From: a bacterium
GTDB taxonomy: Bacteria; Actinomycetota; Acidimicrobiia; Spongiisociales; ZC4RG35
Direction: 5' to 3'
Length of the DNA: 64,000 nucleotides
Assembly: GCA_028823995.1 (NCBI GenBank)
Contig: JAPPFD010000027.1
Span: forward strand, 1 to 64,000
Translations under genes and position numbers: made by a program
In this document: piece after piece, positions 21,322-27,365 of the stretch
Layout: the number at the start of each line of letters is the position of its first letter
Numbering within the stretch: the stretch's first letter is position 1
Notes under the pieces: model-generated
What the model was told of the DNA's origin: nothing
Seen by the model: the letters and a program-made list of their open reading frames with translations, nothing else
Databases searched by the model: none

Positions 21322-22320
21322 CTAGATCAGGTCCTGCTGGCGGATCCCGTAGGAAGGATGCCGCAACCTGCACAGCGCCAGCTTCTCCAGCTGGCGGATC
21401 CGCTCCCGGGTCAGTTGGAAGTGGCTGCCGATCTCATCCAGTCCCTTGGGGATCCCGTCCTCCAAGCCGTACCGCAGTTCCATGATCTTTCGCTCCCGCT
21501 CGGGAAGCTTCTTGATGGAGTTGCGCATGGCGATCGCCACGCTGGTGGCCTCGGCGATCGCCTCGGGATCATCGGCGTCGCCGTCCTCGATGAAATCGCC
21601 CCGCTGCGCTCCGTCCTCTCCCACCGGCTCCTCGAGGGATACGGTGTCGGACAGCACCAGGGCCTGCTCCACATGGTCTATGCGGATGCCCGTCTCCCGG
21701 GAAATCTCATCGGGATTGGGCAGACGCCCGAGCTTTCCCTTCAGGATTCCCTGTGCCAGCCGCACCTTGGCCAAGGTGTCGTGAAGGTGGGCGGGGATCC
21801 TGACGGTGCGGGACTTGTCGGCGATGGCGCGGGTGATGGCCTGCTTTATCCACCAGGTGGCGTAGGTGGAGAACTTGAATCCCTTGCGCCAGTCGAACTT
21901 CTCCACCGCCCGGATCAAACCCAGGTTTCCCTCCTGCACCAGGTCCAGGAAGTCAATGCCCCTCACCCCTTGGTAGCGACGGGCGTTGTGCACCACCAGC
22001 CGCAGGTTGGCCTGCACGAACTGGTTCTTCGCCGCCGCCCCCCGCCGCTTCTGCCTCTCCAGGCTCCTCTTGCCGGAAGAGGTCTCGTACTCGCCTTCTT
22101 CCAGCTTGGTCTCTGCCTGCCGACCCGCCTCCATCAGCTGCGCCAACTCCACCTCCTGTTGGGCGTCCAACAGGTCGGTCTCACTGATAGCCGACAGGTA
22201 CTGGGCAACCAGATCGGAGGTGAGCCGACCGCGCTCGTCCGTTATCTGGTCGGTGATGCGCACCCGCCGTTCCGTTCTACCGTCCGTGCCGGACTTCTTC
22301 AGGGTTGATCGTGATACCAA
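21322..22320 (-). CDS. RNA polymerase sigma-70 factor (SigB/HrdB-like)
   Basis: [40 protein letters not shown]; region 4 [10 protein letters not shown]. Confidence 0.93.
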
Positions 22321-22418: not shown

Positions 22419-23399
22419 TCATAATTTTCGCGGCTCGATGTTCAAGTTGATCATCAATTCCCACACCTGCCGCTCGATTTCGTCCCGCGCTCTTCTCATT
22501 TCCTCGAGGCCCTTCCCCTCCGGCGACCCCACCTGCCACCGCAGGAGACGCTTGCCGGCAATGACCGGAGGGTTCTCCTCGCCAAGGTCCACCACCACCT
22601 CCGCCGCTTCGATCATGGCGGCGCTCAACCGCACGGGGTGGGCCTCGGCGATGTCTATTCCCCGTTCGGCTAGGACCGCCACCGTCCTCGGGTCCACCCG
22701 CGGAGCCGGAGACGAACCCCCATTGAACACCCTCACCGGGCCGGCCGCCATGGCGCGCAGCAAGGCGGCGGCCATCTGGGAACAGTCGGAGTCGCTGGCG
22801 GCCATGAACAGCACGGCCGGAGCCTGATAGGACTCGGCGGGGTGCGACCTCTCCTGCTCTTCTGTCAAGAACTTTTCGAACCGGCGGCGAGCCCGGAGCA
22901 TCGCCACCCTCACCGACCCCTCGCGCTTGAATATCCTGCCCCCGATCTCCGCATGGGAGAGACCCTCCACCTCCCGCAACCAAAGTAGCTCACGGTCCCT
23001 CGGGCCGAGGCGCGCGAAGGCGAGCCGCACCCGTCGGAAGTCCTCCTGGTCCACGGCGTGCTCCTCGGGCAGCACCCGGGTGGTCTCCAGGTCGGGAGCC
23101 GGGAGGGGCCGGTGGCGTCGCCGCAGGTGGTCGTGGAACTTGGAGCGGGCGATTCTCCAGAACCAGGCCTCGAAGGCCTGGGGAGATCGCAGGCGCCCGA
23201 TGGAGCGGACCAGGGACTCGCAGACGTCGCTCGCCACGTCCTCGGCGTCGGCCAACGCCAGACCCTGGCCCCGGAAGAAGGAGACCAGCCGGGGCAGCCC
23301 CTTGGTCAGGATGGAGGCAAGGGCCGCCTGGTCGCCGTCGCGCGCGGCAGTCGCCTCGGACAGCGAGGGAGGCCATTGGGAGGAGTCCGCGGACGCCAT
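22419..23399 (-). CDS. ECF-type sigma factor fused to degenerate LMW-phosphatase/ArsC-like domain
   Basis: N-terminus has sigma regions 2/4 (DAEDVASDVCESL...AFEAWFWRIARSKFHDHLRRR; LSHAEIGGRIFKREGSVRVAMLRARRR); C-terminus AVLFMAASDSDCSQMAAALLR...ERGIDIAEAHPVRLS...VVVDLGEENPPVIAGKRLLRWQVGSPEGKGLEEMRRARDEIERQV aligns by eye to ArsC. Confidence 0.75.
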   Translation of the reverse strand: MASADSSQWPPSLSEATAARDGDQAALASILTKGLPRLVSFFRGQGLALADAEDVASDVCESLVRSIGRLRSPQAFEAWFWRIARSKFHDHLRRRHRPLPAPDLETTRVLPEEHAVDQEDFRRVRLAFARLGPRDRELLWLREVEGLSHAEIGGRIFKREGSVRVAMLRARRRFEKFLTEEQERSHPAESYQAPAVLFMAASDSDCSQMAAALLRAMAAGPVRVFNGGSSPAPRVDPRTVAVLAERGIDIAEAHPVRLSAAMIEAAEVVVDLGEENPPVIAGKRLLRWQVGSPEGKGLEEMRRARDEIERQVWELMINLNIEPRKL

Positions 23400-23503: not shown

Positions 23504-24376
23504 TCATTCTTCCTCTTCATCACCGCTGTTGGGGACAAGAATCGTCGGTTCGTCCTGAGAATGATATTCGAGGATCGGCGCCACGGCCTTCTCCACTTCC
23601 TCAACCGCTTCGTTGATCGCCTCCGGATCCGAATCGGTGACATCCAGCACACCCAGCAACTCCTCCACCTCGATCTTCAGCATCTGGCCCAACTCTTCGA
23701 TGACCGCGGGATCGGCGGTCACATTCAGGGGAGTACCGGCCTCGGCCACCTGTTCCCCCGGGTGGGACTCAGGCGTCTCGTACACCGGGCCGCCCGAAGA
23801 CTCCTCCTGCCCCGATGGCTGGGGACCGTATGCGTAAATGTCCTCTTCAGGTGAGGCGTCTCCCGAAACCGAGCCGGAAGGGGTGGGAGTCTGCGCTCCT
23901 TCAGGAGGTGGCTCGGGTGGAGCCAAGGCCTCGATGATGTCTTCGGACGGAACCACATCGGCGCTCGCAATGGACTCAGCTATGTAAGAGAGGGCCGTGA
24001 CCACCATCTCGGCGGCCTCCAGTTCCCGCTGCTGGTCGATCAGGTCGAGGGCCTCCATCAGCCCCTCCCTGGTGAGGGTCGGAACGTTCACCCCATCGCC
24101 GCCTGCAGTACCGGACGCCACCGTGGCGGACTCCGAGTCCAACGGAGCCACGGAATCCGAACCGCCGGTCAGCACCGCCACTCCCGCCACAACCAGGGAC
24201 ACCGCCAGCGCCACACTCGACGCCAGCACTCCTATCCGCTGACGGCTTCGGGAGCGTTCCCCTGCCCGGGCTATCGCCCGTGAGGCCAATTGCTCGGCAC
24301 GGGCGGGACCCATCTCGTCCCGATAAGATTTGGCTATAGCTCTGAGAACTACTCCGGAAAAGTCCGGTCTGTCCAT
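23504..24376 (-). CDS. Hypothetical single-TM protein, candidate sigma-associated membrane regulator
   Basis: Short basic N-terminus, TM helix IGVLASSVALAVSLVVAGVAVL, long acidic/Pro-rich tail; GGAAGGAAC SD before ATG; lies upstream of the sigma fusion gene. Confidence 0.65.
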   Translation of the reverse strand: MDRPDFSGVVLRAIAKSYRDEMGPARAEQLASRAIARAGERSRSRQRIGVLASSVALAVSLVVAGVAVLTGGSDSVAPLDSESATVASGTAGGDGVNVPTLTREGLMEALDLIDQQRELEAAEMVVTALSYIAESIASADVVPSEDIIEALAPPEPPPEGAQTPTPSGSVSGDASPEEDIYAYGPQPSGQEESSGGPVYETPESHPGEQVAEAGTPLNVTADPAVIEELGQMLKIEVEELLGVLDVTDSDPEAINEAVEEVEKAVAPILEYHSQDEPTILVPNSGDEEEE

Positions 24377-24493
24377 GTTCCTTCCATGTTCCTTCCAACC
24401 CGCTCTATGTTGCAAGACGCTCCGCGCCCCGGTGCGTTACGGAATCGGAGGTGATGGGAGCCGCGTTTCTCCCGTCAGGTAACCTATCAACCC

Positions 24494-25908: not shown

Positions 25909-26421
25909 CTAGAGGGCTGCTTGGACAGACGACCGTATCTCTGACCACTTCACGCAGGTTGTAAGACGGTCCAGGGTTGATACCCCCAGGCCTTTCTGGT
26001 CACCGAGTTCGTCGTCGAGTTTCCGTGTCGGGATTACCCAGAAGGCCCAGCAGTCCCGATCCTGGACGTTTTCGTTGGTCGCCGGTACGGCTTTGTGGAG
26101 GCAGAACACATATACGTCAGCAGGGCGACGGGGTGGGTGGAGACGTTCCCATGTGTCCATCCCTGGGGTCCACAGCCATTTGCGGGGGGCGATGTCGAAC
26201 CTCGGGGTTGACCTGCCGCTGGGATTCCAAGACTGGCTGAAACCGGAGGCCTTGACTTCGATATTCGCATCCCCATACCGTAGATCGAACCCATCCCACT
26301 CAACCCTGGCATCGCCGTCTTTGATGACGCCTAGGGCCTCTCCAACCATCCACTCGGCGAACAGTCCCCTATTGCGGTTTCCGGTAAGGTTGCCCACCGC
26401 CCAATAGTGGAACTCACTCAT
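25909..26421 (-). CDS. Hypothetical PD-(D/E)XK-like nuclease-fold protein
   Basis: GLFAEWMVGEALG...VEWDGFDLRYGDANIEVKASGFSQSW (E...D...EVK pattern); start overlaps DUF4268 gene stop. Confidence 0.55.
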   Translation of the reverse strand: MSEFHYWAVGNLTGNRNRGLFAEWMVGEALGVIKDGDARVEWDGFDLRYGDANIEVKASGFSQSWNPSGRSTPRFDIAPRKWLWTPGMDTWERLHPPRRPADVYVFCLHKAVPATNENVQDRDCWAFWVIPTRKLDDELGDQKGLGVSTLDRLTTCVKWSEIRSSVQAAL

Positions 26422-27365
26422 CGTGGCTCCTCTGCGTCATCGGTGGGAGTGCCAATTTCGGCCATCACTTGGTCCAGATACGGTTGCACCACTCCTCTCA
26501 AGTTGAGGAGATTCTCGGTGATCCACTGTCCAACCGTGTCGGGGATGGACATCGGGTCGTCGATTGCTTCTTCCGCCTGAACCCAAACCCAGTATTGGCC
26601 CTCTTCCTCGTGCCACTCTGTTTCGCCGTTCAGCTCCTTGTCGATCTCTGCTCGGTGTTGGGTGAAGGCGTCAAAGATGTCCTGTTTGTCGGTCCCGTAG
26701 AGTCCCAGGGAAGCGGTCGCCCGTCCCTCGGAAAACCCCGATGAGTAGTAGATGCCTCGATATCCGGTCTGGAACGACCGGTATCGACCCCGGAAACCGC
26801 CCCGGCCCACTGGTTCCAACCCCCGGCGGCGAAGGTACTCGACCACAGGGCGATAGAACTCGGCATAGTATGTACTGACCGTCTTTCTGCGAGGGGCGGA
26901 GGTTGTTCCCGCCTGTGGCGGTTCGACCACCAGGTTGAAGTCGACTACTTTGCGGCCGTCGACCAGGTAGGCCCTGACCTCCACCGCGTACACCGCGATG
27001 TTGTCGCTTTCGTTCAGCCACGACAGGATGCTCCGGTGGTAATCGCTGAAGTCCCGCGCCACCCACACCAGAATGTTGGCCTCCGCGTTGGCGGCATATC
27101 CCAGCAAACGGAGGCAGTGGGAATCGTCAGATGACCCCAACTGGTTCTCGATCACCACCCTGGCGTGGGTAGTGGCCTGCCTTGCGAGAATGTCGACCTT
27201 CCCGGCGCCGGGCAGATGCACTTCCTCTCCTTCCCTTTCCAGCACCAGGTTCAATTCTGCCCCTAATAGGGACAGATTCTCGGCCAGCCATGGAGTGAAG
27301 TCGTAAGCCTCATGAGGCCAAAGGTCCCGTAAGCCGACCGGCTCCAGCGCATGGATTTCCGTCAT
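26418..27365 (-). CDS. DUF4268 domain-containing protein with N-terminal nuclease-like domain
   Basis: DLWPHEAYDFTPWLAENL, VDILARQATTHARVVIENQLGSSDDSHCLRLLGYA, C-terminal DUF4268-like region. Confidence 0.75.
   Translation of the reverse strand: MTEIHALEPVGLRDLWPHEAYDFTPWLAENLSLLGAELNLVLEREGEEVHLPGAGKVDILARQATTHARVVIENQLGSSDDSHCLRLLGYAANAEANILVWVARDFSDYHRSILSWLNESDNIAVYAVEVRAYLVDGRKVVDFNLVVEPPQAGTTSAPRRKTVSTYYAEFYRPVVEYLRRRGLEPVGRGGFRGRYRSFQTGYRGIYYSSGFSEGRATASLGLYGTDKQDIFDAFTQHRAEIDKELNGETEWHEEEGQYWVWVQAEEAIDDPMSIPDTVGQWITENLLNLRGVVQPYLDQVMAEIGTPTDDAEEPR

What the first reader, a model, noticed from the sequence alone, without database searches (positions are those of the whole stretch)
22419..23399. 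ECF sigma factor fused to a pseudo-phosphatase (ArsC/LMW-PTP-like) domain
The N-terminal ~180 aa has sigma regions 2 and 4. The C-terminal ~130 aa follows the ArsC/LMW-PTP layout (VLFxx...SQMAAALLR, GIDI, VVVxLG, GKR..W, RDEIERxV). The catalytic P-loop CX5R position reads MAASDSDCSQ, so the expected nucleophile Cys is Ala and the Arg is Cys, and the usual catalytic DP motif reads SP (WQVGSPEG). A phosphatase fold without catalysis attached to a sigma factor suggests a ligand- or partner-sensing module controlling promoter recognition. I know of no described system of this kind, but could not search.
Basis: partly seen in the sequence, partly recalled or inferred. Interest (0 to 1): 0.75.

Follow-up and report, generated by a model that had tools for sequence, protein, structure and literature searches.

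The report
Sigma factor fused to dead phosphatase
In one small genus of actinobacteria, a gene-switching protein (an ECF sigma factor) has gained a tail made from an arsenate-reductase/phosphatase whose active site has been lost, and the tail has been kept by selection, probably to control the switch.

Summary
ORF 22419-23399 (minus strand, 326 aa) is one uninterrupted protein. It has ECF sigma regions 2 and 4 and a C-terminal LMW-PTP/ArsC domain, supported by Pfam above cut-off, by sequence relatives and by an AlphaFold/Foldseek match to mycothiol-type ArsC. The same fusion is intact in all six genomes held of its genus (75-96% identity) and was not seen in the other genomes sampled (389 of the class, about 400 of the phylum). 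In all six, the nucleophilic Cys, the DP aspartate and the CGDxCP redox motif are gone. The P-loop Arg survives only in the most divergent species. The domain is under purifying selection and arose on one long branch inside the actinobacterial ArsC family, while the same genomes keep a separate intact ArsC. The sigma belongs to an older lineage without the tail. That lineage already has an upstream membrane-protein gene (DUF5667-like) and a GTAACG-N15-CGWC promoter-like motif, and both persist here. The tail was therefore added to an apparently autoregulated sigma/membrane-protein pair and did not replace it. The most likely role is a pseudoenzyme control or docking domain (inferred, not shown). 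[quoted passage not shown]

The parts
22419..23399 (-). ECF sigma factor - pseudo-ArsC/LMW-PTP fusion gene, 326 aa
23109..23294 (-). sigma region 2 (residues 36-97)
   Evidence: Pfam PF04542
22881..23036 (-). sigma region 4 (residues 122-173)
   Evidence: Pfam PF08281
22422..22820 (-). ArsC/LMW-PTP-like domain without catalytic residues (residues 194-326)
   Evidence: Pfam PF01451; PDB sequence relatives 3t38, 3rh0; model and Foldseek
22782..22802 (-). degenerate P-loop A-A-S-D-S-D-C (residues 200-206), replacing C-V-H-N-A-G-R
   Evidence: alignment of 6 fusions with stand-alone ArsC
22575..22589 (-). D-L-G-E-E (residues 271-275), where ArsC relatives have the T-M-G-C-G-D-x-C-P motif; invariant in six fusions
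22521..22526 (-). S-P (residues 292-293) in place of the catalytic D-P
23504..24376 (-). single-TM protein gene upstream of the sigma gene (candidate membrane anti-sigma or partner); conserved in synteny in all six species, remotely similar to the DUF5667-like TM proteins beside tail-less orthologues
24416..24440 (-). promoter-like motif GTAACG-N15-CGTC upstream of the TM protein-sigma operon
   Evidence: 6/6 fusion loci; the GTAAC part in all 12 sigma-only loci checked

Best explanation
An ECF sigma factor that was already paired with an upstream membrane protein, and probably transcribed its own operon, acquired a copy of an actinobacterial mycothiol-type ArsC/LMW-PTP domain by gene fusion in the ancestor of this genus. 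The domain then lost its nucleophile (before the Arg), its redox Cys motif, its DP aspartate and, in most species, its P-loop Arg. It was kept as a folded non-catalytic module on the cytosolic end of the sigma factor. Most likely it acts in cis as a control/docking domain: by binding sigma-2/sigma-4, a partner protein or itself, it sets whether the sigma can engage RNA polymerase. The membrane protein supplies a second, envelope-side input. Shown: the fusion, its six-species conservation, loss of catalytic residues, selection, synteny and the shared promoter-like motif. Inferred: autoregulation, anti-sigma role of the membrane protein, regulatory action of the tail.
For: Domains. Fold: AF2 mean pLDDT 73.8, strand/helix order of LMW-PTP; Foldseek best match 3rh0, target-normalised TM 0.84, with sigma hits AlgU, SigW and sigmaE on the other half. 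All catalytic motifs lost in 6/6 except Arg kept in 1/6. Purifying selection on the tail: pairwise dN/dS 0.12-0.27 (NG86), against 0.05-0.12 for the sigma part, with dS up to above 1; C-terminus conserved almost to the last residue. One clade, 100/100, stem 1.08 against a median end branch of 0.21, and distinct from the genus's own intact ArsC. Tail-less orthologues (about 180-200 aa) keep the TM gene upstream; TM profiles match, hhalign E 2.4e-5, prob. 75%. TGTAAC in 11/12 sigma-only upstream regions and CGTAAC in the twelfth, shuffled mean 0.21; same spacing in the fusions. Precedent: ECF C-terminal extensions act by conformational change or protein interaction (PMC8999054).
Against: No functional data exist. 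Domain packing is not resolved (pTM 0.42), so contact between tail and sigma is unproven. The tail evolves about twice as fast as the sigma part. The TM protein has no recognised anti-sigma domain and its own model is uninformative (pLDDT 36.6). A relaxed motif search shows no excess over the control pattern, so no regulon beyond the operon is visible.
Confidence: 0.55

Rival explanations
1. The tail is a passive fold: a fused domain that only has to fold and stay soluble, so selection preserves the scaffold without any signalling role.
For: P-loop variable (2 of 7 residues invariant); dN/dS higher than in the sigma part.
Against: Retained almost to the last residue in six species with synonymous divergence up to above 1; new residues such as D203, D205, N226, E274 and E275 are invariant; stop codons would remove a useless tail cheaply.
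Confidence: 0.2
2. The tail is a ligand or metal sensor using the remodelled, acidic P-loop (D-x-D), comparable in logic to metal-sensing CorE or OrbS.
For: D203 and D205 invariant in all six fusions, where relatives have N and G; the fold normally binds small oxyanions; sigma factors with metal-sensing extensions exist (PMC8999054, PMC9023288).
Against: Other P-loop positions vary and the Cys206 of five species is Arg in the sixth; no Cys/His cluster as in CorE.
Confidence: 0.17
3. The tail still has an enzymatic activity of a different chemistry.
For: Fold and pocket scaffold retained.
Against: Nucleophile, general acid and redox Cys motif all lost in six of six; long stem branch as expected after loss of function.
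Confidence: 0.03
4. Annotation or assembly artefact: two genes joined by a frameshift or chimera.
For: The related assemblies are metagenome-derived.
Against: Same fusion, same junction and same gene order in six separately assembled genomes.
Confidence: 0.01

Closest known systems
Arsenate reductases of Corynebacterium glutamicum (Cg_ArsC1', 3t38; Cg_ArsC2, mycothiol/mycoredoxin-dependent, 3rh0)
   Same: Closest solved relatives of the tail by sequence (E 4e-17 and 7e-15) and among the best by fold
   Different: Catalytic Cys, DP Asp and CGDxCP motif absent here; fused to a sigma factor
ECF41/ECF56-type sigma factors with a C-terminal SnoaL-like domain (e.g. SigJ)
   Same: ECF core plus a C-terminal globular domain (120-150 residues in ECF56 and others)
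   Different: Unrelated fold; an upstream membrane partner gene is kept here
ECF238 (CorE) and OrbS, metal-sensing sigma factors
   Same: Sensory function placed on the sigma factor itself
   Different: No Cys-rich extension; no metal evidence
ArsR-LMWP fusions (a transcription regulator HTH joined to an LMWPc domain), present in the same genus (L052)
   Same: Transcription regulator joined to an LMWPc domain
   Different: In L052 the P-loop CVHNSARS is intact and the regulator is ArsR-like, not a sigma factor
Tail-less ECF orthologues of the same order with an upstream DUF5667-like TM protein (L036, L008 and others)
   Same: About 45-51% identity over the sigma part, same upstream gene type, same promoter-like motif
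   Different: No C-terminal domain

Membership tests
ECF sigma factor (group 4 sigma-70) | Regions 2 and 4 only | tested here: met
   Pfam/NCBIfam; Foldseek to AlgU, SigW, sigmaE
ECF sigma factor (group 4 sigma-70) | Directs RNA polymerase to a specific promoter | not testable with these tools
   Only a conserved promoter-like motif upstream of its operon
LMW-PTP / ArsC, catalytically active | LMW-PTP fold | tested here: met
   Pfam LMWPc above cut-off; model and Foldseek
LMW-PTP / ArsC, catalytically active | CX5R P-loop nucleophile and Arg | tested here: not met
   Cys absent in 6/6; Arg absent in 5/6
LMW-PTP / ArsC, catalytically active | Catalytic Asp of the DP motif | tested here: not met
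   SP in 6/6
ECF sigma with C-terminal regulatory extension | Conserved globular domain C-terminal of region 4 | tested here: met
   Residues 194-326, six species
ECF sigma with C-terminal regulatory extension | No anti-sigma factor (the extension takes over, PMC8999054) | tested here: inconclusive
   A TM protein gene is conserved upstream but has no recognised anti-sigma domain
ECF41/56 (SnoaL) or ECF42 (TPR) groups | SnoaL or TPR domain in the extension | tested here: not met
   Only LMWPc found there
ECF with membrane anti-sigma | Partner binds and inhibits the sigma | not testable with these tools
   Cytoplasmic N-terminus of the TM protein is better conserved (59%) than its outer part (38%) in the most divergent species

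The most novel reading that the evidence does not exclude
A dual-input sigma factor: a membrane partner supplies envelope signals, and a covalently attached pseudo-arsenate-reductase reads a cytosolic partner or ligand. This would be the first sigma factor known to be controlled by a pseudo-LMW-PTP domain.
Probability: 0.3. Interest if true: 0.7.

Novelty: new variant of a known kind. Interest (0 to 1): 0.52.

Why it matters
Pseudoenzymes turned into regulators are known mainly from eukaryotes (general knowledge), while fused ECF extensions are a growing class with few domain types worked out. This case gives an ordered series (tail-less orthologue, fusion with the Arg still present, fusion with Cys and Arg lost) in one small lineage. 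That makes it possible to test step by step how a metabolic enzyme becomes part of a transcription switch. The review of non-canonical ECF factors names no phosphatase- or ArsC-type extension (zero hits for 'phosphatase' and 'arsen'), and my paper searches found none.

Tried and rejected
Assembly or frameshift artefact: rejected. Catalytically active enzyme: rejected. Tail derived by recent duplication of the genus's own ArsC: not supported, the two fall in separate clades, but deep branches are weak. Large regulon: strict motif GTAAC-N16-CGTCTT gives the own operon in 6/6 genomes plus three other sites; the looser pattern shows no excess over its reversed control. Regulon carried over from tail-less relatives: their motif precedes a short HD-domain gene in several genomes, but no relative of that gene or of the TadE-like gene was found in the six genomes of this genus. 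Structure of the TM protein: model too poor to use. Viral contigs: only one weak ArsC relative. The ECF re-classification paper of 2021 was not held, so ECF group assignment was not attempted.

Full report
Observation. The ORF at 22419-23399 on the minus strand is a single 326-aa protein. Pfam finds sigma region 2 (36-97), sigma region 4 (122-173) and LMWPc (196-315), each above its curated cut-off. By sequence, the tail's nearest solved relatives are the corynebacterial arsenate reductases 3t38 and 3rh0. An AlphaFold model from an eight-sequence alignment has mean pLDDT 73.8. The tail shows the order of strands and helices of the LMW-PTP fold, and inter-domain packing is uncertain (pTM 0.42). 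Foldseek matches the tail to 3rh0 and pI258 ArsC (target-normalised TM 0.84-0.90) and the other half to AlgU, SigW and sigmaE.

Not chance, not an artefact. The same fusion is intact in all six genomes held of the genus, at 75-96% identity. It lies between the same neighbours: the TM protein gene upstream, an RpoD-like sigma gene and Liv transporter genes downstream, and a quinone-oxidoreductase-like gene divergent beyond the TM gene in four of the five related loci. Among 389 other genomes of the class and a sample of about 400 of the phylum, only separate sigma-like or separate ArsC-like matches appeared. These searches score a limited number of candidates per genome and do not reach other phyla, so fusions of independent origin elsewhere are not excluded.

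Active site. Stand-alone relatives have C-V-H-N-A-G-R followed by S-Q-M-A-A, a T-M-G-C-G-D-x-C-P motif and a D-P before the last helix. The window has A-A-S-D-S-D-C, D-L-G-E-E-N-P-P and S-P. All six fusions lack the Cys, the CGDxCP motif and the DP Asp. Five lack the P-loop Arg, while the most divergent (L035) reads E-A-G-D-A-D-R and keeps it. The Cys was therefore probably lost before the Arg. Within the P-loop only D203 and D205 are invariant. The following helix, the N-G-G-S turn, V-V-V-D-L-G-E-E and the last helix with its I-E-P-R-K tail are much better kept.

Selection and origin. Pairwise dN/dS of the tail is 0.12-0.27 (NG86), against 0.05-0.12 for the sigma part. The tail is under purifying selection, though less tight. 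In a tree of 53 ArsC-like domains the fused domains form one clade (100/100) on a stem of 1.08 changes per site, against a median end branch of 0.21. They lie inside the CGDxCP-type ArsC family and apart from the intact ArsC that the same six genomes carry. The deep branches around that clade are poorly supported, so the exact donor is unknown.

The older system. Orthologues of the sigma part without the tail (about 180-200 aa, about 45-51% identity) occur across the order. In the loci examined most have a single-TM protein gene directly upstream, and one of these shows a sub-threshold DUF5667 match. The window's TM protein (MDRP start at 24376) is remotely related to these: hhalign E 2.4e-5, probability 75%, over the cytoplasmic segment, the TM segment and the region just beyond. 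A motif GTAACG-N15-CGTC lies shortly before the TM gene in six of six fusion loci. GTAAC was present in all 12 tail-less loci checked, as TGTAAC in 11, where shuffles give a mean of 0.21 and a maximum of 2; the second half is CGAC, CGTC or a variant at about the same spacing. Several of these loci come from the same genera, so they are not 12 independent cases. The motif resembles known ECF promoters such as that of Bacillus SigX (from memory). The simplest reading is an autoregulated operon that predates the tail.

Mechanism. Most likely the tail is a cis-acting control or docking domain, as proposed for other ECF extensions (PMC8999054). It was added to, and does not replace, the membrane partner. 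This combination differs from the review's description of ECF factors with extensions, which lack an anti-sigma factor. Whether the TM protein is an anti-sigma factor is not shown; Pfam finds no anti-sigma domain in it.

Regulon. A strict motif search finds the own operon in all six genomes and three further sites, and the loose pattern has no excess. In tail-less relatives the motif precedes a short HD-domain gene in several genomes and a TadE-like gene in two genomes of one genus. No relative of those genes was found in the fusion genus, with the second HD query matching 16 of 16 other genomes of the order. The sigma's targets in this genus are thus probably few or different.

Verdict. The functional claim is plausible and untested. 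It is a new variant of ECF sigma factors with a C-terminal extension, apparently confined to one genus.

Noticed in passing
L052 566-2047 (G003): One 494-aa open frame holds an ArsR-type HTH, an intact LMWPc domain, a Phosphatase-like_N domain and a second intact LMWPc domain: apparently an ArsR-LMWP gene in frame with an ArsC gene.
   Followed up: partly
L116, L117, L119, L120, L125, L128, L131, L136, L141, L142, L144, L146, L147: In tail-less relatives a TGTAAC-N-CGAC-like motif lies shortly before a short HD-domain gene, suggesting a shared regulon member of this ECF lineage.
   Followed up: partly
L060, L062, L059 downstream of the sigma gene; L129, L133: TadE/TadG-like genes follow the tail-less sigma gene or the promoter-like motif in several genomes, a hint of a link to Tad pili.
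   Followed up: partly
window 21322-22320 (-): The RpoD-like sigma factor gene next door is 91-99% identical across the genus, more conserved than the fusion gene.
   Followed up: no
window 25909-27365 (-): Two genes (one with DUF4268) beyond the quinone-oxidoreductase-like gene; traces of both were found in only one of the five related loci, so they look like accessory genes.
   Followed up: no
window 24374-24400 (-): An 11-base tandem duplication around the ribosome-binding site and start (GGAAGGAACATGGAAGGAACATGG) of the TM protein gene, seen in the window only and not in the five relatives.
   Followed up: no
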